Part shown: positions 1-11,931 of the stretch, piece by piece
How the letters are laid out: each line of letters begins with the position of its first letter
How positions within the stretch are numbered: the stretch's first letter is position 1
NCBI RefSeq assembly: GCF_014696345.1
Contig: NZ_JACJPY010000034.1
Location: 1-44,459 of the forward strand
Direction of reading: 5' to 3'
DNA: 44,459 bases
DNA from: Pseudanabaena cinerea FACHB-1277
GTDB lineage: Bacteria > Cyanobacteriota > Cyanobacteriia > Pseudanabaenales > Pseudanabaenaceae
Program-made: the position numbers and the translations under genes
The notes under the pieces: model-generated
What the model was told of the DNA's origin: nothing
What the model saw: the letters and a program-made list of their open reading frames with translations, nothing else
Database searches by the model: none

Positions 1-408
1 AGTACTAGCATAGATTTGTAAAATCTTATACTGTATACTGTAGCATAGATTAAGTAAAGCCGTGCTGGAAGCACGGGGTTTTAAACCCATTTTTTTGATA
101 ACTTGAGTCATAACGGAATCGGGAACCTTACTAATATCGCCATTGTTGCCAACACAGAGGCGATATTTTTCTTCTAGCAACTCACGGGCGGTTTTGACTG
201 GTTTGATAGTACGGATATCGATTTGCTTTTCCTTTCGGGATTCGGGCTTGACTTCAGGGTTTGGTTTTTCGGGTTGGGCGATCGCCTGTTGTGAATTAGC
301 GATCGCATTGCTTTGTAAATCCCACCTAGCCAAGTAGTAACCAATGATTGAACCAAATCCAAGCATTAATCCCATTGCAGCAATCAAAAGCTTACTCATT
401 GGTTTCAT
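1..408 (-). CDS. Membrane-anchored hypothetical protein, truncated by the window edge
   Basis: The frame stays open from an ATG at 408 to the left edge (136 codons, no stop). An AGGAGG six bases upstream supports this start; a second ATG at 399 is possible. The product begins with a short basic stretch and one hydrophobic helix (about residues 6-26, KLLIAAMGLMLGFGSIIGYY). A Pro/Lys/Glu-rich linker and a soluble domain with two Cys (LCVGNNGD and LNLCYS) follow. It is the third gene of a leftward run after the 40-aa and 91-aa genes. The last 50 or so codons run through short repeats, so the true 3' end may be altered. I do not recognise the family. Confidence 0.55.
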   Translation of the reverse strand, partial: MKPMSKLLIAAMGLMLGFGSIIGYYLARWDLQSNAIANSQQAIAQPEKPNPEVKPESRKEKQIDIRTIKPVKTARELLEEKYRLCVGNNGDISKVPDSVMTQVIKKMGLKPRASSTALLNLCYSIQYKILQIYAST

Positions 409-514
409 CGTCATCCTCCTCATCCTCATCATCGTTATTGCAATCCCACCAATCAGGGTTTGCATTCGTGAGGGCATCCCAAAAAGTCCAAATTTTGTCT
501 TCAGGCTCTGTCAT
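392..514 (-). CDS. Small acidic protein, 40 aa
   Basis: An ATG at 514 overlaps the stop of the upstream 91-aa gene (ATGA), and the stop overlaps the start of the next gene. It therefore sits inside a translationally coupled leftward operon. The product starts MTEPEDKIWTFWDALTNANP, has several Trp residues and ends in a run of Asp/Glu (DDEDEEDDDE). A very acidic small protein could be a DNA mimic or anti-repressor, but nothing in the sequence proves that. The overlap geometry on both sides is the main evidence that it is a real gene. Confidence 0.5.
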   Translation of the reverse strand: MTEPEDKIWTFWDALTNANPDWWDCNNDDEDEEDDDETNE

Positions 515-786
515 GCTGCTTTGCCCTCATCGTCACTACTTGGAAGTGCTGCCAATTCAGGGAAAGCCGAAATATTGATCGGGCTATCATTGCCGCGAGT
601 GAGCCAAGCAAAGAGCTTAGCGGGGGCTTTGCGAACGATCGCCTGTGTCACCTTTTGCCAGTCGATGCTATCTAAAAGTTGATCGGCTATTTCATCATTT
701 AGGCGATCGCTGATTGCCTCGATGCTTGGGGCTGTTTCTTCTGTGGGTAGTGGCTGTACTACCTCAAGCGGTTTCTTTACTGCCAT
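511..786 (-). CDS. Hypothetical protein of the element, 91 aa
   Basis: First gene of the leftward run at the left side of the element. The product (MAVKKPLEVVQPLPTEE...) has a flexible Pro/Glu-rich N-terminus. A helical core (about residues 22-66) contains QLLDSIDWQKVTQAIVRKAP, and the C-terminus is Ser/Asp-rich. There is no membrane segment or signal peptide. It is divergent from the RHH gene at 928 and shares a 141-bp control region with it. I do not recognise a family. Confidence 0.6.
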   Translation of the reverse strand: MAVKKPLEVVQPLPTEETAPSIEAISDRLNDEIADQLLDSIDWQKVTQAIVRKAPAKLFAWLTRGNDSPINISAFPELAALPSSDDEGKAA

Positions 787-812
787 AATGCTTGATACCT
801 AAGAGATTGGGT

Positions 813-850
813 AAGCGGTGCGTAAGCTGTCGAAATCTAGCGCACCGCTT
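813..850. promoter_or_regulatory. Perfect 10-bp inverted repeat upstream of the leftward genes
   Basis: AAGCGGTGCG (813-822) and CGCACCGCTT (841-850) are perfect inverted complements separated by 18 bases, with a short T run after the right arm. On the + strand this could act as a weak terminator, but no + strand gene lies upstream. On the - strand it falls in the leader of the 91-aa gene. An operator or leader hairpin is therefore equally likely. Confidence 0.4.
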
Positions 851-869
851 TTTAATGTTATACCTTAAA

Positions 870-889
870 TACTGTCAGAATGCACAGTA
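870..889 (+). promoter_or_regulatory. Candidate operator palindrome before the RHH gene
   Basis: TACTGT and ACAGTA form a perfect 6-bp inverted repeat with an 8-bp spacer, 38 bp before the ATG of the RHH protein. A second smaller symmetry (ACAC-A-GTGT, 904-912) lies between it and the gene. RHH repressors commonly bind such sites and regulate their own genes, so autoregulation of the two-gene operon is a reasonable inference. Confidence 0.35.
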
Positions 890-927
890 ACTAGATAGTA
901 TTTACACAGTGTTTATTATTTGATGTT

Positions 928-1125
928 ATGGCTAGAAATTCGCAAAAAGTCCAAGTTATGCTCCCTGACAATATTTATGAGGTTATTAAAGCCATGTCGG
1001 AATCTGGCGAAACAGCCTCAGAATATTGTGCAAGGGCGATCATCAATAAAGTTGAGCATGATCTGATGGTTAAGTTGCCCGAAAAATGGCAAGCATTCAC
1101 CGCAAAGGAGGCAAGAAAAGAATGA
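928..1125 (+). CDS. Ribbon-helix-helix (CopG/Arc-like) DNA-binding protein
   Basis: A 65-residue protein with the RHH pattern. A basic beta strand (KVQVMLPDNIYE, about residues 7-18) is followed by two helices (IKAMSESGET and ASEYCARAIINKVEHDL) ending in a short tail. RHH proteins dimerise and bind palindromic DNA through the strand. Its stop overlaps the start of the next gene (ATGA), giving a two-gene operon of DNA-binding proteins. It may be a repressor or copy/excision regulator of the element. It could instead be an antitoxin, but the partner is a winged-helix protein rather than a recognisable toxin. Confidence 0.75.
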   Translation: MARNSQKVQVMLPDNIYEVIKAMSESGETASEYCARAIINKVEHDLMVKLPEKWQAFTAKEARKE

Positions 1126-1364
1126 CGGATCGAGACGTTTTAGAGGTACTAGCCAAAGTATCACCCAGAGCCGCTAAAAGCCGATATATTCGCGAGACAT
1201 TGAATATACCCAAAAGCTCAAAGAATGCAAAAACTGTTTTGCAGTGCCTTGGGAGGTTACAAGCCAAAGGGCAGGCACAAGCATATAAACCCGATCCTTT
1301 GGGGGAGAAAAAATATTGGTTTATTACCGAACAAGGTAAGCAATCATTAAAAAATGAGCAATAA
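1122..1364 (+). CDS. Small winged-helix DNA-binding protein
   Basis: I start this at the ATG that overlaps the upstream stop, with AAGGAGG about ten bases before it. An in-frame ATG at 1086 is less likely. The 80-residue product (MTDRDVLEVLAKVSPRAAKS...) reads as helix, helix, recognition helix (SSKNAKTVLQCLGRLQAKGQ), then a beta wing (KKYWFITEQGKQSL). This is typical of PadR/MarR-like or phage wHTH regulators. It is cotranscribed with the RHH gene. The final codons lie inside the left 41-bp inverted repeat, so its end is shared sequence with the end of the convergent fibre gene. Confidence 0.65.
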   Translation: MTDRDVLEVLAKVSPRAAKSRYIRETLNIPKSSKNAKTVLQCLGRLQAKGQAQAYKPDPLGEKKYWFITEQGKQSLKNEQ

Positions 1365-1398
1365 AGAAGAGAGGCGATCGCTAAGTTAGCGATCGCCT
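1358..1398 (+). repeat. Left copy of a perfect 41-bp inverted repeat with terminator-like hairpin
   Basis: This copy is the exact reverse complement of 1505-1545. It contains its own near-perfect palindrome (AGGCGATCGCTAA / TTAGCGATCGCCT, one-base centre) built on two HIP1 octamers. It starts inside the last codons of the wHTH gene and covers its stop. The internal hairpin can terminate transcripts from either side. Confidence 0.85.
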
Positions 1399-1415
1399 TT
1401 GCTATAGTTAATATT

Positions 1416-1484
1416 CGCGGGGTGAGTAGTGGTTAGAGCGCACGCGGCAGTGTGTGAATGGCAGTTCGATTCTGTCCCCTGCGG
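1416..1484 (+). tRNA. tRNA-like sequence, anticodon not assignable, probably degenerate
   Basis: A cloverleaf can be drawn. The acceptor stem CGCGGGG/CCCTGCG has 7 pairs with one G-U. The T arm GGCAG-TTCGATT-CTGTC has a canonical TTCRA loop. A CACGC/GTGTG anticodon-like stem encloses GGCAGT. A D-loop-like AGTGGTTAGA is present. It is short (69 nt), the D stem is poor, the anticodon loop has six bases and no U33, and no anticodon can be read with confidence. CCA is not encoded. It may be a decayed phage tRNA or a tRNA-mimic. It lies between two convergent genes, inside the inverted repeats. Confidence 0.5.
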
Positions 1485-1504
1485 TTTAGATCACATAACA
1501 AGAG

Positions 1505-1545
1505 AGGCGATCGCTAACTTAGCGATCGCCTCTCTTCTTTATTGC
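1505..1545 (-). repeat. Right copy of the perfect 41-bp inverted repeat with terminator hairpin
   Basis: Exact reverse complement of 1358-1398. Here the hairpin stem is longer (AGAGAGGCGATCGCTAA pairing with its complement) and a T-rich run follows. It works as an intrinsic terminator on the + strand behind the tRNA-like sequence. The repeat covers the stop codon of the convergent fibre gene. Confidence 0.85.
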
Positions 1546-2441
1546 TGTAGGTATGCGCTAATTTCAATCTTGGCTCCTAATCTTCGATCTGGAGAGATAT
1601 AAAATCCTTTGGAGTGTTGCCCCAGTAAATAGGCTTGAGTCAAAGTAAAACAGGTTTCATCAGGGGATAAATCCGTACTCGATCCTTTTTTCATGAAGAA
1701 AATATTTGAAGAAATAGACCACGAAGGGACTTCATTGTTTGGATCGGTCATTTCATAAAACAGGGCATAGCATCCTGCCCCATACAGATCTAATGCTTGG
1801 CTGAAGTCCTGCCCTCCATCCTGCCAGCCAAAATTATTGAAATCAAGAAAAACATCCCCCACAGGGTGGTGATTGCAATATGCCCAAAAAAATCTCCCGT
1901 AAGCATCAGGATATTGAAAAAGCAAGCCCTGATCTTCAAGATAATTATTAGAAACCGTTATTGGCGGGATGGTGTTTCTCCAAATTAGGTTAGCACCGTC
2001 AGCGATCGCTACAAAAATATGCCCGTGCCTAGCGTCAAAATACTGCTCCCCTAATGCAATCGGGGCAGTTTGAGGGGGATTATTGCCTACAGCTATTGCA
2101 CTGCCTCCCCCAGTGCCTCCGCCATCAGCCCCAACGATCTCTAGCCAATCAGTAGGCAAAATCCCATTAGCGCGGTAGATGCGATTTTGATCCACGCGCA
2201 CTAAAAGCTGTGTTTGGCTCATTGGCTCAGGGAAAGTCTCGTCAAAGATGACGCGCTGCTCTGGCATTGGCGAAAGCTCTACTAGCTGCCCTTGGTTTGT
2301 GCCTGTAGCGCGGTAAACCTTGTTTGTGTCAGTAGCGGTCAGTATTTGATCGAAAAAGTCAGGCGTAATGGTTGCAGGATTGCCCGTAAAGGTTCGCAAT
2401 CTTGCATAGTGCAGATCGGTGGTTAGTTCACTGTGTCGCAT
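1539..2441 (-). CDS. Phage fibre or adhesin-like protein, 300 aa
   Basis: Last gene of the leftward structural operon, 2 bp after the previous stop. The N-terminal third has two similar beta-hairpin units, TNKVYRATGTNQGQLVEL (about residues 39-56) and QNRIYRANGILPTDWLEI (about 85-102). These resemble the head-binding or shaft repeats of phage fibres. A Gly-rich linker (GADGGGTGGGSA) follows, then a large C-terminal domain rich in aromatic residues and Gly (for example YCNHHPVGDVFLDFNNFGW), likely the receptor-binding tip. There is no signal peptide. The family call rests on motif style; the C-terminal domain is not recognised. Confidence 0.5.
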   Translation of the reverse strand: MRHSELTTDLHYARLRTFTGNPATITPDFFDQILTATDTNKVYRATGTNQGQLVELSPMPEQRVIFDETFPEPMSQTQLLVRVDQNRIYRANGILPTDWLEIVGADGGGTGGGSAIAVGNNPPQTAPIALGEQYFDARHGHIFVAIADGANLIWRNTIPPITVSNNYLEDQGLLFQYPDAYGRFFWAYCNHHPVGDVFLDFNNFGWQDGGQDFSQALDLYGAGCYALFYEMTDPNNEVPSWSISSNIFFMKKGSSTDLSPDETCFTLTQAYLLGQHSKGFYISPDRRLGAKIEISAYLQQ

Positions 2442-2443
2442 AT

Positions 2444-2725
2444 TTAATCCTCAAAAATTACATTAGAGCCATCGGTCACGACTGCGCCATTAGCAACCAC
2501 AATCGCGCCCAAAATGGCTTCGATATTGCCGCCATCGGCGCTAACCTGCGCCCAGTCGGTAACGTTGTTAGTCGCCTTGGCAACCCATAGGCGATCGCTA
2601 AGCGTATTTAGCCAAAAAGTCCCAATTGCATCTGGGGCAATATCAGGATCTTTGGGGTGCAGTATTGCCGAAGGCGGGGGCGCTTCGGCAACATTGATCG
2701 TCAGCATCGGATTTGAAATAGGCAT
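2444..2725 (-). CDS. Small fibre-like protein, 93 aa
   Basis: The product has a Pro-rich start and then one beta-hairpin unit, GTFWLNTLSDRLWVAKATNN followed by VTDWAQVSADGG. This closely echoes the repeat units of the downstream fibre gene, including the Trp-Asp/Glu ending and Gly-rich exit. Such units are common in tail-fibre head regions. It starts immediately at the stop of the 490-aa gene and ends 2 bp before the fibre gene, so the two are probably made together. It could be an adaptor or a split-off head domain. Confidence 0.5.
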   Translation of the reverse strand: MPISNPMLTINVAEAPPPSAILHPKDPDIAPDAIGTFWLNTLSDRLWVAKATNNVTDWAQVSADGGNIEAILGAIVVANGAVVTDGSNVIFED

Positions 2726-4198
2726 TTAATTAAAAGTCACTCCTTTTGGTTCTTGATCCATCCACAAATCTACCCTTACCAAGTCTTCGGCAAGCTTGGA
2801 GCCGTCTAGAAAATCTCGCCCCTCGCCTGTAGTTGTTCTACGGACTAGCAGGGTTGCGTATGCAGGGAAAACCTGCACAGGCTCTTTTTTGAGCGCAATA
2901 TTCTTCTTTTCGACTTCTTCAGTTACCGAAATACTTAGCGGCTTGGCAGTGCTAAGGGTGAGAAAGCGTTTAAGCACTCGCTCGGCTTCGCTCTTATTGC
3001 TGGCATAAATTGCCATTTGCCGCCCGTTATCTAGGTTAGCCGTAGCCCTAAATTTGCCCCAAGTATAGGGCTTGCAAGCATCCTTAATTCGCCGCCAAGA
3101 TAGCCCCACAACTACATCAGGGATAGTTACGGTGACATCTTTACAGTTTTTACTGCCAATGCGCCATGGTGGTTCTTTTTTGCCTTTTTTGAGAATAATC
3201 GTTAGCTGGCGGCGCAATGGCTTTGCGGTTAGGTAGTCTTCGGCAGGTTGCCCGACAATTTGCCCAACGTCACGATTGGCAATTAGGCGGTAATTGTTGA
3301 GGGCTGACAGGGTTTCTGTCTCAACATCAATTTGCGCCCCTGTGATGATCATCTCTTCTTTGATCTGTTTGTTTGGGCGTAGTCGTACAGTGCGTTTTTT
3401 ACCTTTAGTAGCCTCGTTTGCCGCTTTTGCTTGAACGTAAGCATCATCTATCTCCTGAGCGATGATCATTCCATTTTCCCAAAAAGTATCAACAAATTCA
3501 TCGCTTGCCGATTCTGAAAAAGCACGCCAATTTTGATCTTTTATTCCCTCAAGCTGTCGCTCAAATTGAGCGCTGAAGCTCATGTCTACCCCACCCTCAG
3601 TAGCTTTGCCTCCGTTTATAAATTTTCTAATGTTTATGTAACTACTAATTAAGGCTTGATTCCCTACAGAGCCGATAGTCTGAAGTAGCGCTGCCCCAAA
3701 ACTTTGTACGACTTCCCGCCCCCCTTCTTGAATTACTTTACTGGCGACAGCATTAGCTAAAGCGCCCCCCCCTACTACGGGAACAACTAAAGCAACTCCG
3801 TATCCTATCCCCAAAGTCACAATAAATCCAAATAGCCGCCCGAAAAAATTCCCGATGGCGCTAAAAGCTCTTGTTTGCTCTGATTTAATCATTGCCTCTA
3901 ATTCTTTGTCAGAGGCATTCCAGTTAAAAGCCGCGACTCGTTGAACCGTGCTAAAAAATCCTTGAACAATAGCCACAACAGCCCCTGCGCCAAAATTTAA
4001 GCTCTGAAATATTGGACCAGATATAAACCCCAAGAAGCCTTTAAACCCTTGAGTGATTTTTTCTAGGATGTTGCTCCTTTCAGATCGAATAATTGGATTT
4101 TTTAAGTCCAAATAGCGAATCTTCCCTTTTATATTCCCTACTTTTTCTCTGATTTTTCTTGAAGTAAGTAGGTTTTTTACTAATTTTAGTTGAGTCAT
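2726..4198 (-). CDS. Putative virion protein with large hydrophobic Gly/Ala-rich segment, 490 aa
   Basis: The N-terminus (residues 1-50) is strongly basic. Three hydrophobic, Gly-rich stretches follow: about 52-82 (GFLGFISGPIFQ), 112-150 (FGFIVTLGIGYGVALVVPVV, then GGGALANAVAS) and 164-190. The C-terminal half is soluble and rich in beta strands and Lys/Arg. No enzyme motif is visible. The layout recalls membrane-penetrating or pilot proteins of virions, or a minor coat protein, but this is inference only. The gene is 3 bp after the 635-aa gene and abuts the small fibre gene, so it belongs to the same transcript. Confidence 0.45.
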   Translation of the reverse strand: MTQLKLVKNLLTSRKIREKVGNIKGKIRYLDLKNPIIRSERSNILEKITQGFKGFLGFISGPIFQSLNFGAGAVVAIVQGFFSTVQRVAAFNWNASDKELEAMIKSEQTRAFSAIGNFFGRLFGFIVTLGIGYGVALVVPVVGGGALANAVASKVIQEGGREVVQSFGAALLQTIGSVGNQALISSYINIRKFINGGKATEGGVDMSFSAQFERQLEGIKDQNWRAFSESASDEFVDTFWENGMIIAQEIDDAYVQAKAANEATKGKKRTVRLRPNKQIKEEMIITGAQIDVETETLSALNNYRLIANRDVGQIVGQPAEDYLTAKPLRRQLTIILKKGKKEPPWRIGSKNCKDVTVTIPDVVVGLSWRRIKDACKPYTWGKFRATANLDNGRQMAIYASNKSEAERVLKRFLTLSTAKPLSISVTEEVEKKNIALKKEPVQVFPAYATLLVRRTTTGEGRDFLDGSKLAEDLVRVDLWMDQEPKGVTFN

Positions 4199-4201
4199 AA
4201 T

Positions 4202-6109
4202 TTATTTCTCTTCTTTGATATCTGGGGAAGATTCACCTCTATTAAAAGGGGAATTTGGATTGTTGATGTCCTTTAAAAATTGCTTCCAATCATCCTCCGA
4301 TTTGAGACGCTCTTTTACTTGCTCATCAGCCTTTTCAAGAACCTCTCTCATTTGTTTTTTGTTGCGAAAAAATACGGATTTAATAATCCCTGCGGCAAAC
4401 ATTAGTTTCATGAAGAAGTCGGCGGCTGTTTCCTTGTCTTCGTTTTGCCAGCCTTTGACGTGACCTTTGACTGTTTGTAAAATCTCGTCTATCCGAACCT
4501 CTTGATCTTTTTCTCCTAAAACTAATTTTGAGAAGTCAAATTGATACGTTAATTCTCTGTCGGCAGGATTGCCTTTGTAGCCCAAAAATTTCGCATTGGC
4601 TTTTGCATAGTCTTGAGTGATCGCAATCCCATTTTTTGCGGCAATTACTTCGGCTGCAATTCTCAAAAGCATTGCTTGATCTACTTCTTGGTTAACCGCG
4701 CCTTTAGCAACCAATCCATAGATTTCAGCGATCGCTTCGGCAAGGTTAGGCAATTGAATTTTTTGCTTTTGATCGCCCTTGGTTAAGGGGTCTATATCCT
4801 TTACCTCAATCTCAATAGGGAATTCGCCAATCAGCGAGTCCAGCTGATTGGTAAGCCAAAACATAAAGTCAGTTTGGCTTTGAAGTTTATCTACCTGATC
4901 GCCAGTTCCAGTTAGCAAACTCCTAGGAACCTCAATGGGATATTTCTCAATCCCTGCGGTTTTACCCAAAAGGTTTAGTAATCCTGTCAAGGATTGATCC
5001 GAAAGTTTAACCGCTTTTTGTACTTCACTAGGCAATTTCCCAGTTCCTAATATTTTTTTGATCTCTTTAAGCTCTTTTAGAAGATCATCAGCTTTCTTAT
5101 TCGCTTTGTCAGCGTTGTCATTTGCATCGCGGCAGCTATTACAACACATACGTTCCTCTGGATCTTTTTTCCTTTTGCGTTTATCATCCCTACCAAATGG
5201 TGGTGGTGGTGGGGGCGGTGGTGGTAGTGGGGCGCAATTCGCAGGGACTCCACAACATCTTCCCACAGTCCAACTGATGAAAGTGAAACTAGTTGTATGT
5301 TCAAAAATTGGGCTTTGCGGGGTTGCCTGCCGACTGATGCGGACCAAGACGGATTGATAAATATAGGTGTCTGCGAAAGTGTGATAAACCCAAGGCGCTC
5401 GATCCGTATCTGAGAAAGGAAAGGATAGATCCAGATGGCATTCAGGTGCAAGATCGCCATACCCTGGTATGGGTTCTGTCGCGCCTAGCCGTACAATTTT
5501 GGCTCCCGCCTCTACCTTGATCTCTTCCTTGAAAACTTCTTCTTGCTGTTCTTGCACGATAAAGCCTCTTATATTTCGCATCGTGCCACGATTCCAGCGA
5601 TTATGCCATCGATTGATAATCCCTTCCCTAGATGCACATTCTGGGGTTTTGCACTGGTTGGGTTGGGGATTTTCATCATAAGGGGGCGGCATTAAGGCAT
5701 TTATAATGTCTAGCCCCGATGGGGGCGGCGGGTTATCTTCCTTGCAATTAGGATCGCGGCGGCAAACTATCGTAGGAGTCAGCTTTACCCATCCCACAAC
5801 GGGATAGGTGTAGAGGCAGGTAGTACAGCCATTTGTGCGGACTTCGATCTCAAAGCCGATGGGTGGTCCCAATCGGATCGTATTTCCCTCGCAGTAGGGA
5901 GAGGCAGGATATTTTGAGCAATCACGCGGATCGACAGGCTCAAAAGGATCTGATATAGACCACTCATCATTGATAGGCGTAAGTGTGGGAGGGACTGGTA
6001 GCTCTCCAAAAAAAGGATTAGCTGTATTGCCGAAAAGATCAGGCTCTTCGGCTCTTTTTATCGGCCGGGGGCTAAAGTCGCGCCCACCAATTCTTCCTGC
6101 TCCCCTCAT
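4202..6109 (-). CDS. Large Cys/Pro-rich protein with coiled coil, 635 aa, unknown family
   Basis: Three parts can be seen. Residues 1-295 are beta-rich and Cys-rich with paired patterns (DCSKYPASPYCEG, NGCTTCLYTY, CRRDPNCKED, QCKTPEC), suggesting disulfides or metal sites. Residues about 296-325 hold nine consecutive prolines, a basic patch (DDKRKRKKD) and CCNSC. Residues about 325-360 form a Lys/Ala/Asp-rich coiled coil, followed by a long helical region ending in an acidic tail. There is no signal peptide. It overlaps the upstream gene by four bases. Position and size suggest a structural or host-interaction protein. I recognise no family. Confidence 0.5.
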   Translation of the reverse strand: MRGAGRIGGRDFSPRPIKRAEEPDLFGNTANPFFGELPVPPTLTPINDEWSISDPFEPVDPRDCSKYPASPYCEGNTIRLGPPIGFEIEVRTNGCTTCLYTYPVVGWVKLTPTIVCRRDPNCKEDNPPPPSGLDIINALMPPPYDENPQPNQCKTPECASREGIINRWHNRWNRGTMRNIRGFIVQEQQEEVFKEEIKVEAGAKIVRLGATEPIPGYGDLAPECHLDLSFPFSDTDRAPWVYHTFADTYIYQSVLVRISRQATPQSPIFEHTTSFTFISWTVGRCCGVPANCAPLPPPPPPPPPFGRDDKRKRKKDPEERMCCNSCRDANDNADKANKKADDLLKELKEIKKILGTGKLPSEVQKAVKLSDQSLTGLLNLLGKTAGIEKYPIEVPRSLLTGTGDQVDKLQSQTDFMFWLTNQLDSLIGEFPIEIEVKDIDPLTKGDQKQKIQLPNLAEAIAEIYGLVAKGAVNQEVDQAMLLRIAAEVIAAKNGIAITQDYAKANAKFLGYKGNPADRELTYQFDFSKLVLGEKDQEVRIDEILQTVKGHVKGWQNEDKETAADFFMKLMFAAGIIKSVFFRNKKQMREVLEKADEQVKERLKSEDDWKQFLKDINNPNSPFNRGESSPDIKEEK

Positions 6110-6297
6110 AGCAATAGTTTCCCCCCTTGCAATGGCTGAATAATGTCATACCGCGATGGCTTTTCATGGCTGACAAAGCGCCAATAAATCATTTCGGCTT
6201 CGATTTTGCCGCACTTGTACGGAAGCTCGATCGCTTGCACTTGCTTTGAGCGATCGCCCCGATTGTCTTCCATAAACCAGTTATCTAAGTCAAACAT
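6106..6297 (-). CDS. Hypothetical small protein, 63 aa
   Basis: Short protein (MFDLDNWFMEDNRGDRSKQVQ...) with Trp/Tyr/Phe-rich beta segments (KIEAEMIYWRFVSHEKPS). Its start shares one base with the stop of the 269-aa gene, and its stop overlaps the start of the 635-aa gene, so it is translationally coupled on both sides. That coupling is the best evidence that it is expressed. There is no membrane segment and no recognised family. Confidence 0.55.
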   Translation of the reverse strand: MFDLDNWFMEDNRGDRSKQVQAIELPYKCGKIEAEMIYWRFVSHEKPSRYDIIQPLQGGKLLL

Positions 6298-7106
6298 TAG
6301 ACCGCCTCAATCCCAGTTAGAGCGGCGTTACTAGCACTAATCGCACTAATTGCGCCGCGATAAATATTAGAAAAATTAATTTCGTAGCTACCACCACCAC
6401 GCATTAGGGTAATGCCCTTGTTTAGCTCTGCCATGCTCCCGTAATTGATAAATATTTCTTGGGTGAGTGACCTGTTAACTAGCGTCACCTGTTGCCGATT
6501 TGGGTTAGCTGGCAATATCACCTGTGAAGCGCTGCCAACAGTCCATTGATAGGGCTGTGCAAAGCTTATTTCTTTGCTATCAGTTGGTAATGTGGTTATT
6601 TCTTCCCTCACACTGCCAAAAATCAATACTCTATCTGTGCCTGATAGCTTGCCATAGCCCACATCGACAATTTGAGCACCTAATAGAAAATCGTTGCTAG
6701 TGTCAAAGCTTACGTTATCGGTCAGGTATGGCAATAAATTCACCTGATAGTAAGGCAATCGATTTAAAAGCGATACATCAAAAACGGGTTGCCAGCCTAG
6801 CCTAGAGGTTTTGATAAAAAAGCTTATTTGCTTTCGTGGTGACTTCCACTCCATATCACGTAGCGCTGTCAATCGCTCAGTACGGCTTGTGTCTGCGTCA
6901 AGGTTTGGTATGTCTGCCTCAACCATCGAATTTATGTCGACTCGCATTCTCAGTGAGGTAATAAATCCGTAAAATCGCAAGGTCTGCACGCGATCGTATG
7001 GCGAGATTGCAGATGGCTGATAAATAATCTGCATACTGTCACTGCCCTGCCCAAACGCTGACAGGATCTGCTGTGTACGGCTGAAGGTCTGCTGCAATTC
7101 GCTCAT
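6297..7106 (-). CDS. Putative structural protein of the element, 269 aa
   Basis: Soluble, beta-rich protein. It begins with a helix (MSELQQTFSRTQQILSAFGQ) and continues with alternating strands such as RVQTLRFYGFITSLRMRVDI and LPYYQVNLLPYLTDNVSF. Near the C-terminus is a segment on nucleotide-independent Ig-like lines (QQVTLVNRSLTQEIFINYG). Size, lack of enzyme motifs and position as the second gene of the leftward operon suggest a capsid or coat-related protein, without proof. It overlaps the upstream gene (ATGA). A phage structural role is inferred from the fibre genes downstream. Confidence 0.45.
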   Translation of the reverse strand: MSELQQTFSRTQQILSAFGQGSDSMQIIYQPSAISPYDRVQTLRFYGFITSLRMRVDINSMVEADIPNLDADTSRTERLTALRDMEWKSPRKQISFFIKTSRLGWQPVFDVSLLNRLPYYQVNLLPYLTDNVSFDTSNDFLLGAQIVDVGYGKLSGTDRVLIFGSVREEITTLPTDSKEISFAQPYQWTVGSASQVILPANPNRQQVTLVNRSLTQEIFINYGSMAELNKGITLMRGGGSYEINFSNIYRGAISAISASNAALTGIEAV

Positions 7107-7303
7107 TGTTGCCTCAATAAATATTCCCGTTCGGTCATCAGTTGGTCGTAAGCTTCGCTTTTGGATATGCGGAGAGCCGTAGCAATTCGGGCTATTAGGG
7201 GTTGTCTTGGGCTGTATTTCGCCCTTTTGCCAAATCGCCCAATCTTTCGGGCAATGGCTCGTTTACTGCAAGTCGACATCAAAGGATAGGCGCGTAATTG
7301 CAT
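7103..7303 (-). CDS. Small basic protein, first gene of the leftward operon
   Basis: I use the internal ATG at 7303 (MQLRAYPLMSTCSKRAIARK...). An in-frame ATG at 7378 would add 25 less convincing residues. The product is about 66 aa and very basic (KIGRFGKRAKYSPRQ). It ends in a helix-turn-helix-like pair (LIARIATALRISKSEAYDQL). It may bind nucleic acid, as a regulator or DNA-condensing protein. Its stop overlaps the start of the 269-aa gene (ATGA). Confidence 0.45.
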   Translation of the reverse strand: MQLRAYPLMSTCSKRAIARKIGRFGKRAKYSPRQPLIARIATALRISKSEAYDQLMTEREYLLRQQ

Positions 7304-7378
7304 ATTTACAAAAATTAATAATTGCGAGTAAAAGGTATGAGTATTCTTCCGTCTAATTAACGTCCCCATAGGGTTCAA

Positions 7379-7469
7379 GCTAAATTTCTGTGCTTAATCG
7401 TAGCACGTTTGGGAAGTTCGCACCCCTATATGTGGGGATTGACAAAGCTCAAAAAGCGTTAGATTAATA
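7379..7469. promoter_or_regulatory. Divergent promoter region between the two structural operons
   Basis: TTGACA lies at 7439-7444 and is followed 18 bp later by ATTAAT (7463-7468), a plausible sigma70-type promoter for the rightward operon. It would start transcription near 7475, which favours the ATG at 7500 over that at 7470 for the first gene. A small CCCC/GGGG hairpin (about 7422-7437) sits just upstream. The leftward promoter must lie here too, but I cannot fix its boxes. Confidence 0.45.
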
Positions 7470-7499
7470 ATGCAAACCCTAGATATGGTTTTTTCTATC

Positions 7500-7853
7500 A
7501 TGGCTGATTTAACTTTTGCTAACTTAAATACCGCGCTTGGCGGATCTGCTATTTCTGCTTCTGGGTCTTCGCTAACTATCGATTGCTCTATTTTGATGGG
7601 TGAATCTGCGATCGCTTTGACGGATCAGAAAGTTGCTGAATTTATTACTCGTTTACTTGACGCAACCGCAGAGGCTCAAGACACATATAACGACGATCCT
7701 GCAAATACCACCAAAATCTCTAGCTACCCTCAACCTGTTTCGGGCGTTCCCTTTGTAGATGCCGCTACGGGGGATTTCTATGTTTCTAGTACTTACAGCT
7801 TCCAATCTCGCGCCCCATTGAATAAGGCGGCAACTACTGCGGTAGTAGCTTAG
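7500..7853 (+). CDS. Small Ala/Ser/Thr-rich protein, candidate major coat protein
   Basis: I choose the ATG at 7500 (MADLTFANLNTALGGSAISA...), downstream of the likely transcription start. An in-frame ATG at 7470 would add ten residues. The roughly 117-aa product is rich in Ala, Ser and Thr, with strand-helix-strand character. It has no Cys apart from one near the start and no membrane helix. It is the first gene of the operon and is followed by a strong terminator hairpin. This is the arrangement used by many viruses to express a coat protein far above the genes behind it. No family is recognised; the coat role is inference. Confidence 0.5.
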   Translation: MADLTFANLNTALGGSAISASGSSLTIDCSILMGESAIALTDQKVAEFITRLLDATAEAQDTYNDDPANTTKISSYPQPVSGVPFVDAATGDFYVSSTYSFQSRAPLNKAATTAVVA

Positions 7854-7863
7854 ATTTGAGAGC

Positions 7864-7884
7864 GAGCGAGATTCTATCTCGCTC
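7864..7884 (+). terminator. Hairpin plus U-rich tail after the first operon gene
   Basis: A nine-pair stem (GAGCGAGAT/ATCTCGCTC) with a TCT loop is followed by a T-rich run (TTTATCTTCTTTTT). It is an intrinsic terminator located inside the operon. Partial read-through would give graded expression, with the first gene highest. Confidence 0.75.
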
Positions 7885-7925
7885 TTTATCTTCTTTTTGT
7901 TCACTTTTGAATAACAGTAACAACA

Positions 7926-8534
7926 ATGACATCTCGTTTAGTTTTTGTGGCTATGGCTGCGCCATACGCCGACATTAAGTATGGATTCCGTACTACGGTT
8001 AAAGAATCCACATCAACCATTCTCGGACATCAAGCCCTTGTAGTTGACACTCCTGTAACTGGTTTGATTTTCAAGGCAAATACGCCTAAACCTCGCCGCG
8101 CTTCTCGCCGTACTGCAACAGGTCTAGAATCTAGCTTTATCGCTCCCTCTGCTGTGGCTGCTGCTGTTGCGGCTGGCTTTGATATTACCAAGGCTCGTCC
8201 TAATGGTCGCAAATCTCGTACTCAGTTCCAAATCCCTGTATATGTAACCGTCAACGGTGTTAAGTATGCTTGGGGAATGCGTGTGGCGCAGAAAGCCAAG
8301 TTAGGCGCTAACTTTGCTGCTTTAGGCATCAAAGAAGCGACTGGAGCAGAACAGGATCTAGTTTTCGGCGCTTCTTTCCCAAAACCTCCAAGGGCTGAAA
8401 GCATCGTAACTAGCAAAAATGGCTCCGTATCTTCTAGCACTTTTTACGATCCTACGAATGAATCTCAAGTTGCTGGCAAATTCAGAACTGAAGCGGGTCA
8501 ATATACTGCGGCTGCTTGGGCTGACTTCGTATAA
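7926..8534 (+). CDS. Candidate coat or capsid protein, 202 aa
   Basis: Soluble protein rich in Ala, Lys, Arg and Ser, with a basic central segment (KANTPKPRRASRRTA, then ARPNGRKSRT). Beta strands surround it (FQIPVYVTVNGVKYAWGMRV). A Ser/Thr-rich C-terminal part follows. Basic patches would suit nucleic-acid contact inside a particle. It is the second gene of the operon, after an internal terminator, and its last base is shared with the next ATG. An alternative ATG at 7953 (MAAPYADIKYG) is possible. I cannot place it in a known capsid family. Confidence 0.45.
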   Translation: MTSRLVFVAMAAPYADIKYGFRTTVKESTSTILGHQALVVDTPVTGLIFKANTPKPRRASRRTATGLESSFIAPSAVAAAVAAGFDITKARPNGRKSRTQFQIPVYVTVNGVKYAWGMRVAQKAKLGANFAALGIKEATGAEQDLVFGASFPKPPRAESIVTSKNGSVSSSTFYDPTNESQVAGKFRTEAGQYTAAAWADFV

Positions 8535-8752
8535 TGACCGATCGCCTCATTATGACCCCTGACGATTTGGGCTTTTACGAGATCCTTAACGGCTCCCTGC
8601 CAATAGATTTCGATGGCTCTCAGTGTGTTATCCAAAGGGCTGGATCGGGGTTACTCGCATCTGTCTCTTTTAGTGAGGCGATCGAGTACGCCCTTGGTGG
8701 TGAATACGATTTAGTTGATGATGAATTTGATGGGGAACTATACGATGAGTGA
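8534..8752 (+). CDS. Hypothetical acidic protein, 72 aa
   Basis: Short acidic protein (MTDRLIMTPDDLGFYEILNG...) ending in an Asp/Glu-rich tail (DLVDDEFDGELYDE). Its start overlaps the stop of the 202-aa gene by one base, and its end overlaps the start of the next gene by eight bases. The tail is unlike anything else in the element. A scaffold or chaperone role next to a coat protein would be a guess. Confidence 0.55.
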   Translation: MTDRLIMTPDDLGFYEILNGSLPIDFDGSQCVIQRAGSGLLASVSFSEAIEYALGGEYDLVDDEFDGELYDE

Positions 8753-9113
8753 TTGGCAGTACGCAACTACCCAAACGTTTAATAGCGTTAGTGGCGCTGT
8801 CGATCTCTCATTTGTTTTCTCACAACCTTTCTTAATTATTGATTTGGGTTCTAATCAGAAAAAAGCTTCTTGGAATAAGGCTGGCGACATCCTGCAACTG
8901 GTAGATGTCGAGCTGGCTTTAGGGTTTCATACAAGGGTTGAGGTAGCTGATTCTTTTGCCTATCTGGGCTTTGAGCCAACCCTTTTAAATTTTAATGTTG
9001 GGGATTCCTATCGACTGCGATTTAAGCCTGTGCCTTGGCTTACCCAATTTACGCTCACTGTTTATCAAGGCAATATTGCCACCGCTCCAAACTCTTACAT
9101 TCTAGGTATATGA
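8745..9113 (+). CDS. Hypothetical beta-rich protein, 122 aa, possible structural protein
   Basis: Started at the ATG at 8745 (MSDWQYATTQTFNSVSGAVD...), which overlaps the previous stop. Two in-frame ATGs further upstream lie deep in the previous gene. The protein is almost all short strands (AVDLSFVFSQPFLIIDLGSN, YRLRFKPVPWLTQFTLTVYQ), as in beta-sandwich coat or decoration proteins. Its stop TGA overlaps the next ATG. No family recognised. Confidence 0.5.
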   Translation: MSDWQYATTQTFNSVSGAVDLSFVFSQPFLIIDLGSNQKKASWNKAGDILQLVDVELALGFHTRVEVADSFAYLGFEPTLLNFNVGDSYRLRFKPVPWLTQFTLTVYQGNIATAPNSYILGI

Positions 9114-9970
9114 GCCTGATTTACGCCCCTATTAACGAATTGCCATTTGCTCCAAATTTTGAGGGCAATGATTATTTATTGATTTGGGATATTTCGCAAC
9201 CCGCAAACCAAGCGCGGCGGCTCACCTTTACGGCTTTAGCTTCGTTTCTTGCCTATACCAGTAGGGAATTTGAGTGGGCGGACATCATCAATAAACCCGA
9301 CACTTTCCCCCCTGCAAGCCATACTCATATTCCTGCGGATATTCTGGGCTTTGATAGCGCTGTTGACGCAAGATTGGGGAATTTGCCCAATGGCGCGATC
9401 ATTGGTGGTGCTGCACATTTTACGGATGAGGTTCCCCCAGCTACGCGGCGCGATGGATCATTGATACAGATCGGCGATCGCTTGCTTAAGAATAATGGGC
9501 AAAGATATTTTTATGATGGATCTGACTGGGTAACGGAGCAAGCTGGAGGGATTGCGGGGCGATGGACGTTTGTGGGCGCTTCAGAACCTTTTTTGCTGGA
9601 AAACGCGACCTTAATTGGCTATCAAGATTTAAGCGCCTTGAAAATTGTTTCGCTGAATATCCGATATTTCTTGCTTACTCAAGGCGGTTTAGAAGATGCC
9701 AATAATTATTGGCGGTTTGCCTTCGTTTTTAGAGGCTCTCGAAATCAAAATCAATCGGGGTTTTTCAATTGGGAGATGAGCTTGCGATTAGATGGGATTG
9801 CTTTCCCCCTTCCCACACTAACACCACAGCATTTAATTTTATATCCGCCAAACCCCAAAACAGCCTTTTGCGATCTTGCCGCGATATCGGCGGCTGCGTT
9901 GAAATTTGGCAGTGTTACTAGTATTTTGCAGGCTAGTTTTGTTCTCGTTACCAGAGGAGTTCACCCATAA
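9110..9970 (+). CDS. Phage tail-fibre/adhesin-like protein
   Basis: Started at the ATG overlapping the previous stop (MSLIYAPINELPFAPNFEGN...). About residues 50-85 contain WADIINKPDTFPPASHTHIP and then a GFDSAVDARLGN stretch. This is a classic phage-fibre signature (W.DI..KP..FPP..H.H...). Around residues 115-150 is DGSLIQIGDRLLKNNGQRYF with YDGSDWVTE, another fibre hairpin. The C-terminal half is a beta-rich domain that is likely the tip. With the two fibre-type genes at the end of the opposite operon, it shows that the element makes a surface-recognition device. The exact receptor is unknown. Confidence 0.65.
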   Translation: MSLIYAPINELPFAPNFEGNDYLLIWDISQPANQARRLTFTALASFLAYTSREFEWADIINKPDTFPPASHTHIPADILGFDSAVDARLGNLPNGAIIGGAAHFTDEVPPATRRDGSLIQIGDRLLKNNGQRYFYDGSDWVTEQAGGIAGRWTFVGASEPFLLENATLIGYQDLSALKIVSLNIRYFLLTQGGLEDANNYWRFAFVFRGSRNQNQSGFFNWEMSLRLDGIAFPLPTLTPQHLILYPPNPKTAFCDLAAISAAALKFGSVTSILQASFVLVTRGVHP

Positions 9971-10386
9971 TGATCAAGATTTCATACGCAGACACAACAT
10001 ATGTACTAAATCCCCCCAATTTTGAAGGATTACCTGCAATTCTCAGAGAAAAATATGATCGGGGCGAGTACACGGAAATCCCAGATCTGCCCCATCCCTC
10101 ACTGCCTTCTGATTGGGAAGGCTTGCTTAATCGACTGCTCTCAGGTGACCTCTATGAGCTTTTCAAATCGATTACTAATGCAGCTTTTTCTAATCCCACT
10201 GTGCTAGTGGCCCGAAATGATATTTATGGCGCGATTAGCAATCCAAAGATTAGCGATCGCTTAGGGGCGCTTCGCGCTGGTTTAGATATGCTTGAAAATT
10301 CTGGTTTTGAATTGACTGAGCAGCATAAAACGCTGTGGAATCAGGCTGTTGACGAATTAAATTTTCCTGATGAGGTAAAACTATGA
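9970..10386 (+). CDS. Hypothetical protein after the fibre gene, 138 aa
   Basis: Soluble, mixed helix/strand protein (MIKISYADTTYVLNPPNFEG...) with a Pro-rich linker (EIPDLPHPSLPSDWEG) and a helical C-terminus. It starts on the last base of the fibre stop, with GAGGAG about ten bases before. Small acidic helical proteins directly after a fibre gene are often fibre-assembly chaperones, so that role is a reasonable guess. No family is recognised. The stop overlaps the next start (ATGA). Confidence 0.5.
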   Translation: MIKISYADTTYVLNPPNFEGLPAILREKYDRGEYTEIPDLPHPSLPSDWEGLLNRLLSGDLYELFKSITNAAFSNPTVLVARNDIYGAISNPKISDRLGALRAGLDMLENSGFELTEQHKTLWNQAVDELNFPDEVKL

Positions 10387-10637
10387 GTTTGCAAGATGCG
10401 ATCGCTATTTTTGGAGTGCTGACTACGATCATCACCATTGTCTATATGCTTGGGCAACAATCCCAAAAAATCGCCCAGTCCGCCAAAGATTTAGATGCAC
10501 TTTTTGACAATGTTCGGCTTAACAATGAACGCCTTTCAGATTTAGAAAAGGCATTTATCAGGACTGAGCAGCGCGTCACCTTCTTGGAGGATCGAGTCTA
10601 TGGCGATGAGACGATCGCTAGAGTTCGGGAGAGATAG
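10383..10637 (+). CDS. Small membrane protein with coiled coil, possibly holin-like
   Basis: One N-terminal membrane helix (about residues 7-24, IAIFGVLTTIITIVYMLG) is followed by a heptad-rich coiled coil (KIAQSAKDLDALFDNVRLNN, then ERLSDLEKAFIRTEQRVTFL). This resembles short phage proteins annotated as holin-like or haemolysin-XhlA-like. It is the last gene of the rightward operon and overlaps the end of the convergent integrase gene by 20 bp. A lysis role is inference because no endolysin is visible nearby. Confidence 0.5.
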   Translation: MSLQDAIAIFGVLTTIITIVYMLGQQSQKIAQSAKDLDALFDNVRLNNERLSDLEKAFIRTEQRVTFLEDRVYGDETIARVRER

Positions 10638-11727
10638 GGGGCTTAGGTCTATCGGCTCTTTGCATGAGTAGATCGTATGCTTTTTGATGATGGCGATCGC
10701 TAATCCAGTGGTGATACAAATCGCTGTGAACTTTGGCACTATGTCCCATCTGTTGCGCTGCCAGTGAAATATCAAGCCCAAACTCAAGGCTACGGACTGC
10801 CCAACAATGGCGTAAATCGTAAGGCTTGAAGGGGATAGAATATCTTTTAAATGCCTTTGATACTTTGGCTCCTAAATCAGCGTTGCTTTTGCCCTTTACC
10901 TGCGGCAAGGCAGCGCTTTTTAATTGAAATAAATCTACCCATTCGGGATAGCAAGCCCAAACGCGCCGCGCTCCTGTTTTGCCATCGGTCACGGTCAGGA
11001 TAGGCAGATCCTCAAGATTTAGATTAAATATTTCGTGCGGTCTAATCCCGTATGTGGCAAGCATCCCATATACCCATTGCCAAGCAGGGTTTGAGATTTT
11101 GTAATAGGTTTCTTGGATTTGTTCATCAGTTGGCAGATCGCGGGGGCTAACTTTTAATGGTGAGTGCTTGCCCGCATAGATGGAAAAATCAAAATTTAGA
11201 TCAGCAAATTTGGATAGGGCATTAGCAACCATGCAATAAATTTGTCGACTGCGAGTGTCAGGGTCAATCCTAAAAATAGTTTCTTTCAGGATTTCGACTG
11301 TGAGCGGTGCATCTGGTGGTAAACGCTTCAGTACTTCATAGTAATTTTTTCGCCATGTGGTGAGCGTTTTGGGGTTCTTGTCACGCTTTGAAAAATAATC
11401 TTTTTCAAACCTTTCTACCCACTCGCCGCAATTTTGGGCAATTTGGCGATCGCTCAAATAAGGTATCCACGAAAATTCTTTGCAATCCAACAGCGCCCCA
11501 ACTTTTCGGGCTTCGGCTTCGGCATTTTTTACGCCCAAAGGATTTGCATGAATGCCAAGCGCTAAGCGCTGCTGATATGGCGCTTTTTTATCGCTGTCTG
11601 GTTTCGGGGGAAAAGTACCGCGCAAATATAGGCGATCGCCTTGCCTTGTAATTGAGATTCCCACCTTTGCCGCTTTGAGCCGCCCGTTAGCTTGGGCGAT
11701 CCTTCCGTCTATGTCGATTTCTGCCAT
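10618..11727 (-). CDS. int: Tyrosine recombinase (phage integrase)
   Basis: 369-residue site-specific recombinase. The N-terminal part (about 1-80) looks like an arm-binding domain, and residues 85-180 match a core-binding SAM-like domain. The catalytic domain shows Arg229 (YGIRPHEIF), a Lys near 250 (DGKTG), DLRH around 303-307, GH at 328-329 and the nucleophile Tyr338 (DLYHHW). The usual first His of HxxR is Tyr303 here. It lies 130 bp from tRNA-Thr with its 5' end toward the tRNA. Three 10-bp repeats lie in the gap. It likely integrates the element at the tRNA 3' end. No excisionase is recognised. Confidence 0.9.
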   Translation of the reverse strand: MAEIDIDGRIAQANGRLKAAKVGISITRQGDRLYLRGTFPPKPDSDKKAPYQQRLALGIHANPLGVKNAEAEARKVGALLDCKEFSWIPYLSDRQIAQNCGEWVERFEKDYFSKRDKNPKTLTTWRKNYYEVLKRLPPDAPLTVEILKETIFRIDPDTRSRQIYCMVANALSKFADLNFDFSIYAGKHSPLKVSPRDLPTDEQIQETYYKISNPAWQWVYGMLATYGIRPHEIFNLNLEDLPILTVTDGKTGARRVWACYPEWVDLFQLKSAALPQVKGKSNADLGAKVSKAFKRYSIPFKPYDLRHCWAVRSLEFGLDISLAAQQMGHSAKVHSDLYHHWISDRHHQKAYDLLMQRADRPKPPISPEL

Positions 11728-11760
11728 GCCTAAAGTTAGCCTATTTTTTCCGTGTCTATT

Positions 11761-11790
11761 AGGTAGTATTGGGTAGTATTAGGTAGTATT
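11761..11790. repeat. Three tandem 10-bp repeats between integrase and tRNA
   Basis: AGGTAGTATT, GGGTAGTATT and AGGTAGTATT are head-to-tail with exact one-helical-turn spacing. The position, between the integrase start and the attachment tRNA, suits integrase arm-type sites or an integrase operator. Confidence 0.6.
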
Positions 11791-11809
11791 GCAAATTTCG
11801 GCATACTAA

Positions 11810-11834
11810 AAAAGCCTTGCATTGCAAGGCTTTT
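11810..11834 (-). terminator. Intrinsic terminator after tRNA-Thr
   Basis: A 12-pair perfect stem (AAAAGCCTTGCA and its complement) around a single base is followed, on the - strand, by TTTTTTA. It ends the tRNA transcript before the integrase promoter. Confidence 0.75.
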
Positions 11835-11859
11835 GAGTGATTTTTAGTCGCTGAAAAAG

Positions 11860-11931
11860 AGCCGATGAACAGATTTGAACTGTCGACCTGCCGATTACGA
11901 ATCGGCTGCACTACCCCTGTGCTACATCGGC
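11860..11931 (-). tRNA. tRNA-Thr(CGT)
   Basis: On the - strand the acceptor arms are GCCGATG and CATCGGC with discriminator T. The D arm contains AGGGGTAG. The anticodon arm GCCGA-TTCGTAA-TCGGC has anticodon CGT, and the T arm has TTCAAAT. CCA is not encoded. Its 3' end faces the integrase, so the 3' half is the probable att core. The tRNA is complete on this side, as expected when an element restores its target. Confidence 0.92.

What the first reader, a model, noticed from the sequence alone, without database searches (positions are those of the whole stretch)
1358..1545. tRNA-like sequence enclosed by perfect 41-bp inverted repeats that also form the ends of two convergent genes
The two 41-bp copies are identical in inverted orientation. 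Each contains a HIP1-based terminator hairpin, and each includes the final codons and stop of a different gene (wHTH on +, fibre on -). The 107-bp core holds a tRNA-like fold with good acceptor and T arms but a poor anticodon loop. Perfect identity implies recent duplication, gene conversion or active inversion. It may insulate or flip an RNA, or produce an isolated tRNA mimic.
Basis: seen in the sequence. Interest (0 to 1): 0.7.

Follow-up and report, generated by a model that had tools for sequence, protein, structure and literature searches.

The report
Prophage tRNA-like gene between twin terminators
In a prophage of a Pseudanabaena cyanobacterium, a small gene-like stretch that folds like a transfer RNA but has no usable anticodon sits between two copies of one transcription-stop hairpin, at a spot where a related prophage carries an intact tRNA gene.

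Summary
Each arm is a 27-bp self-palindromic HIP1 hairpin plus 15 bp with a stop codon. The hairpins look like terminators, a type common in related prophages. The core is tRNA-like beyond chance: Rfam tRNA 23.1 bits, E=0.0031, below the gathering score of 29; ARAGORN reports none at default; a strict acceptor/T-arm scan finds it with no hit in 919 kb of shuffled sequence. No 7-nt anticodon loop is possible. An extended -10 box precedes it, and the predicted transcript folds best as tRNA-like domain plus terminator. The junction's regulator gene occurs in 4 of 38 family genomes. There the junction holds an intact tRNA (G010), a tRNA-shaped RNA between twin hairpins (G003, weak evidence), one hairpin only (G015), or this unit. 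I read it as a phage-carried, non-decoding, tRNA-derived RNA gene. Whether it works or is a decaying pseudogene is open. Active inversion is not supported.

The parts
928..1125 (+). small regulator-like ORF, 65 aa (ribbon-helix-helix is my recall, not a match)
   Evidence: ORF; only sub-cut-off matches (Pfam DUF7646 E=0.0042; NCBIfam E=0.045); relatives next to the same junction in 3 other genomes
1122..1364 (+). wHTH-like regulator, 80 aa, overlapping the previous ORF
   Evidence: phrog_2440 transcriptional regulator E=0.00046; weak PadR match E=0.0083; no relative in 25 other genus genomes
1357..1398 (.). left arm of the inverted repeat, with the wHTH stop codon and HIP1 hairpin 1372-1398
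1400..1408 (+). extended -10 element TGCTATAGT, predicted start about 1415
   Evidence: sequence; not listed by the sigma-70 scan, no -35
1416..1484 (+). tRNA-like domain: acceptor, T-arm, GC-rich hairpin in place of the anticodon arm
   Evidence: Rfam tRNA 23.1 bits; strict scan; fold of predicted transcript
1500..1536 (+). right HIP1 hairpin, terminator-like on + with T-rich tail
1505..1546 (.). right arm of the inverted repeat, with the stop of the fibre-like ORF
   Evidence: no PHROG, Pfam or NCBIfam match; relatives in 6 of 25 other genus genomes
10618..11727 (-). integrase of the prophage
   Evidence: phrog_1 integrase E=5.7e-14; Pfam Phage_integrase below cut-off
11859..11931 (-). intact tRNA-Thr(CGT), inferred attachment site; 48-nt 3' copy on contig C4:5367-5414

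Best explanation
A small RNA gene carried by a temperate phage, derived from a tRNA and no longer able to decode, set as a self-contained unit between two convergent phage transcription units. Shown: tRNA-like acceptor/T-arm half, loss of a 7-nt anticodon loop, terminator-like hairpins on both sides, and tRNA or tRNA-like units at the same junction in relatives. Inferred: transcription starts at the extended -10 box just inside the left hairpin, about 1415, and stops at the right hairpin; the ancestral junction had one hairpin, as G015 has, and the second copy came with or after the RNA gene; the 42-bp identity arose by copying one terminator onto the other (template switching or gene conversion). 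Most likely activity, untested: the kept upper half (acceptor, T-arm, D-loop GG) is bound by tRNA-handling enzymes or factors of the host, so the RNA acts as a tRNA-body mimic and not as a decoder.
For: Rfam tRNA 23.1 bits, E=0.0031; strict scan: 3 hits in 183,896 bases (this core and two genuine tRNAs), 0 in 919,480 shuffled bases at T-loop 8 of 9 or better, 1 at 7 or better. Minimum-energy fold of 1415-1545 is the tRNA-like domain plus terminator, -57.0 kcal/mol. Extended -10 at 1400-1408. Same junction in G010 holds an intact tRNA (57.3 bits), in G003 a TATAAT and tRNA-shaped RNA between twin hairpins, in G015 a single hairpin. A second odd tRNA-like sequence in a related prophage of the same genome, C175:3627-3700, 26 bits, is absent at the matching gap in G012.
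Against: Below Rfam's gathering score and missed by ARAGORN. Fold energy is ordinary: 21 of 200 shuffles of the 70 nt fold as well, 53 of 200 for the 106-nt core, whose own best fold is a different one. Acceptor/T-arm shape without T-loop letters occurs in 50 of 3000 shuffles of the core, and the G003 shape in 74 of 3000. The best fold of the C175 sequence keeps acceptor and D-stem but not the T-arm. No sequence relatives, so no covariation can be counted. No -35 and no hit by the promoter scan. No expression data.
Confidence: 0.45

Rival explanations
1. Decaying phage tRNA: the phage once carried an ordinary tRNA here; this copy lost bases in the D-arm and anticodon loop and now does nothing.
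For: G010 has an intact tRNA at the same junction; scores are below standard cut-offs; D-stem and anticodon loop are broken; G010 also holds a short remnant resembling the window's D-region.
Against: 12 of 12 acceptor and T-stem pairs and all 9 T-loop consensus letters are kept; promoter-like and terminator-like signals are in place.
Confidence: 0.37
2. Invertible RNA switch: recombination between the arms flips the core.
For: Perfect 42-bp arms; the unit's direction relative to the fibre-like gene differs from G003 and G010.
Against: The cores of the three genomes do not align as one element; 27 of 42 bp are palindrome; no recombinase but the integrase matched among the proteins scanned.
Confidence: 0.06
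3. A MITE-like mobile element of 190 bp with 42-bp terminal inverted repeats.
For: Perfect terminal repeats.
Against: The core is single copy in the genome; no target-site duplication seen by eye.
Confidence: 0.04
4. Chance: two ordinary terminators and an unrelated spacer that happens to look like a tRNA.
For: ARAGORN default and Rfam gathering thresholds not met; fold energy ordinary; shape alone in 50 of 3000 shuffles.
Against: Rfam E=0.0031; no shuffle hit in 919 kb for shape plus T-loop; an intact tRNA at the same junction in a relative.
Confidence: 0.04

Closest known systems
Phage-carried tRNA genes / moron-type accessory genes (moron as a term recalled; listing seen)
   Same: RNA gene between phage genes with its own promoter-like and terminator-like signals; an intact tRNA at the same junction in G010.
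   Different: Cannot decode: no 7-nt anticodon loop, no D-stem.
tmRNA tRNA-like domain
   Same: Upper half of a tRNA without a decoding anticodon loop (tmRNA described so in the abstract start of PMC3985003, listing).
   Different: No tag reading frame found or tested; ARAGORN finds no tmRNA; only about 70 nt plus terminator.
HIP1 (GCGATCGC) palindromes of cyanobacteria
   Same: GCGATCGC in both strands of each hairpin stem.
   Different: The passages of PMC3219970 that I saw tell of HIP1 enrichment at RNA polymerase peaks and call its function unknown; they do not describe it as a terminator stem.

Membership tests
Functional tRNA gene | 7-nt anticodon loop on a 5-bp stem | tested here: not met
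   Loop of 4, 6 or 8 nt by register (sequence; fold)
Functional tRNA gene | 7-bp acceptor next to 5-bp T-arm with consensus T-loop | tested here: met
   7 of 7, 5 of 5, 9 of 9
Functional tRNA gene | Score over Rfam gathering cut-off / ARAGORN call | tested here: not met
   23.1 against 29 bits; none
Moron-type accessory unit of a prophage | Lies in a prophage, absent at the same junction in a relative | tested here: met
   Integrase and tRNA-Thr copy; single hairpin only in G015
Moron-type accessory unit of a prophage | Own promoter and terminator | tested here: inconclusive
   Terminator-like hairpin, extended -10 by pattern only; no expression data
Invertible element | Both orientations present in a population | not testable with these tools
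   No reads held
MITE | Several near-identical copies in the genome | tested here: not met
   One full-length match

The most novel reading that the evidence does not exclude
Temperate phages of Pseudanabaena carry, as insulated cassettes, small RNAs that keep the upper half of a tRNA but have given up decoding, and use them to occupy or divert host factors that recognise tRNA (maturation enzymes, elongation factor, or tRNA-targeting defence). Two related prophages of one genome each carry a different one.
Probability: 0.2. Interest if true: 0.75.

Novelty: new variant of a known kind. Interest (0 to 1): 0.45.

Why it matters
Phage tRNAs are usually explained by codon supply or by replacing tRNAs cut by host defence (recalled). 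Phage tRNA-like RNAs that cannot decode would need another role, and standard annotation passes over them: ARAGORN at default and Rfam at its gathering score both miss this one. The junction offers a natural series in one phage family (one hairpin only, intact tRNA, non-decoding form) in which function and decay can be told apart.

Tried and rejected
Other RNA families: at gathering score the only match in the window is the tRNA-Thr; weak STnc50, snoRNA and microRNA hits are under half of their gathering scores and were dropped.

Recent copy of a host tRNA: not supported. Against 30 of the 38 above-cut-off host tRNAs (those with loci), the G010 tRNA and the C175 sequence, the best score is 44, to a host tRNA with anticodon CAT; 200 shuffles have a mean best of 25.4 and a maximum of 44; genuine tRNAs score 49-118 to each other.

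Sequence relatives of the core: none found in phages or plasmids, viral contigs (patterns) or 57 related genomes, where the other matches are 15-27 nt at E 0.03 or worse. A covariance model of the window's sequence over 388 class genomes gave, besides the window, two matches at E<=0.01, both ordinary tRNAs by ARAGORN. Protein relatives of the flanking genes in viral contigs: none but one 42-residue match at E=1e-3 in a phage that looks unrelated (L068), dropped.

Relaxed acceptor/T-arm scan: 12 hits against 34 in three times as much shuffled sequence, so no enrichment; with all 9 T-loop letters required, 8 hits against 9 in three times as much. Only strict hits and those also supported by Rfam are used. 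An Rfam scan of 33 kb that included C175 did not list the C175 tRNA-like sequence.

Model R1 had its brackets one column off and was never searched with; R2 replaced it. Alignments A1 and A2 hold one sequence twice. Paired HIP1 hairpins occur in 2 of 38 family genomes and 2 of 388 class genomes: the window, G003:C320 and G003:C619; the last lies in an array of five hairpins and was set aside. A D-region match in G016 lies inside an ORF and was dropped.

Papers: searches listed nothing that I recognised as such a cassette. I saw passages of PMC3219970 and PMC5733544, and abstract starts of the others in listings.

Full report
What was checked. The inverted repeat is real: 1357-1398 and 1505-1546, 42 nt, perfect, 106 nt apart. 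Each arm is a 27-nt near-palindrome plus 15 outer nt with a stop codon. The repeat is thus two copies of one hairpin with 15 bp more identity than the hairpin itself requires. A wHTH-like ORF (1122-1364, +) and a fibre-like ORF (1539-2441, -) end inside the arms. The terminator scan lists the right hairpin on + (17 pairs, T-rich tail) and the left one on -.

The hairpin. GGCGATCGCTAAnTTAGCGATCGCC is at four places in the 4.77-Mb genome with up to two mismatches: two here, one on contig C4 and one on contig C90, both inside what I take to be prophages. In related genomes a HIP1 hairpin directly follows the stop of the fibre-like gene in 4 of 6 loci inspected (L021, L022, L025, L026); L023 has another hairpin there, and L024 has a HIP1 hairpin further on. 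The hairpin is ordinary for this group.

The prophage. The left 11.86 kb of the window is one end of a prophage with an integrase (phrog_1, E=5.7e-14) next to tRNA-Thr(CGT). An exact 48-nt copy of the 3' part of that tRNA lies at C4:5367-5414, beside a D5-type primase, so C4 most likely holds the other end (inferred). Contigs C90 and C175 hold a related prophage. Its integrase is 59% identical; two further proteins are 84% and 91% identical over the matched parts; other matches between the contigs range from 29% upwards. C175 has an intact tRNA-Leu(CAA) at 7045-7128 and C90 a fragment of the same tRNA at 11648-11712. That C90 and C175 belong together is inferred.

The core. Rfam's tRNA model matches 1416-1484 with 23.1 bits, E=0.0031 for 79 nt against 4227 families; the gathering score is 29. 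It was not listed at E up to 10 when 301 nt or the genome were searched, so it is near the limit. A scan for a 7-bp acceptor (at most one G-U) directly next to a 5-bp T-arm with at least 8 of 9 T-loop letters gave three hits in 183,896 bases (this core, tRNA-Thr, tRNA-Leu) and none in 919,480 shuffled bases; at 7 of 9 letters the shuffles gave one. The scan missed three genuine tRNAs with a mismatch or further G-U pairs, in L077, L079 and L080. Shape alone, without T-loop letters, is not rare: 50 of 3000 shuffles of this core. The case therefore rests on shape and letters together. The anticodon arm closes a loop of 4, 6 or 8 nt, never 7, and the D-stem is missing though the D-loop GG is there (by eye). 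PMC5733544 gives the anticodon loop of tRNA as always 7 nt (passages). It cannot work as a normal tRNA.

A gene? TGCTATAGT at 1400-1408 is an extended -10 element that would put the start at about 1415, one base before the tRNA-like domain. The predicted transcript 1415-1545 has the tRNA-like domain plus terminator hairpin as its minimum-energy fold, -57.0 kcal/mol. Against this, 21 of 200 shuffles of the 70 nt fold as well, the 106-nt core has another best fold with z = -0.58, there is no -35 element and the promoter scan lists nothing in the core.

The same junction elsewhere. The regulator 928-1125 has relatives in 4 of 38 family genomes, this one included. G015: one HIP1 hairpin between regulator and fibre-like gene. 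G010: hairpin, an intact tRNA (ARAGORN Glu-TTC; 57.3 bits), hairpin, then a short stretch that begins like the window's D-region and a short ORF (ORF read by eye). The pattern of that D-region occurs in 3 distinct contexts in the 407 kb of partly redundant loci held: the window, G010 and a chance place in G016. G003: hairpin, TATAAT, a 63-nt stretch that can form acceptor, tetraloop hairpin and T-arm, ATAACAA, hairpin. The G003 shape is weak evidence (74 of 3000 shuffles) and Rfam did not list it. In G010 the unit is on the fibre's strand, and in G003 too if its TATAAT is the promoter; in the window it is on the other strand.

A second one. C175:3627-3700, in the other prophage, has 6 of 7 acceptor pairs, 4 of 5 T-stem pairs, all T-loop letters, and by eye a 3-bp D-stem and a 9-nt anticodon loop; Rfam 26 bits, E=0.007 for the genome. 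Its best fold keeps acceptor and D-stem but not the T-arm; 5 of 200 shuffles fold as well. It lies between two genes on the same strand. In G012, whose downstream gene is 63% identical, the same gap is short and has no such sequence.

Interpretation. This junction is a place where the phage family carries tRNA or tRNA-like units between terminators. The window's unit is a non-decoding tRNA-like RNA gene with plausible signals of its own, insulated on both sides; the extra identity of the hairpins is best explained by copying. I give 0.45 to a working non-decoding RNA and 0.37 to a pseudogene; with no sequence relatives covariation cannot decide. Inversion, a MITE and chance are less likely for the reasons given under the rivals.

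Limits. Contig breaks hide parts of the prophages. There are no expression or read data.

Noticed in passing
L067 (G000:C175) 3627-3700, - strand: Second tRNA-like sequence with a 9-nt anticodon loop between two genes of a related prophage; 26 bits by Rfam tRNA; absent at the matching gap in G012.
   Followed up: partly
L077 (G010:C29) 11128-11203, - strand: Intact tRNA called Glu(TTC) by ARAGORN in a prophage; its D-arm looks leucine-like to the eye.
   Followed up: partly
window 1-11859 with L065 (C4), L066 (C90), L067 (C175): Two related prophages at tRNA-Thr(CGT) and tRNA-Leu(CAA) in one genome, with several proteins that match no Pfam or PHROG family among those scanned.
   Followed up: partly
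L074 / L076 (G003:C619): Five HIP1 hairpins within about 700 bp, with no tRNA-like sequence seen.
   Followed up: no
L092 (G100:C104): Cluster of 11 tRNA genes within about 1.5 kb in another cyanobacterial-class genome.
   Followed up: no
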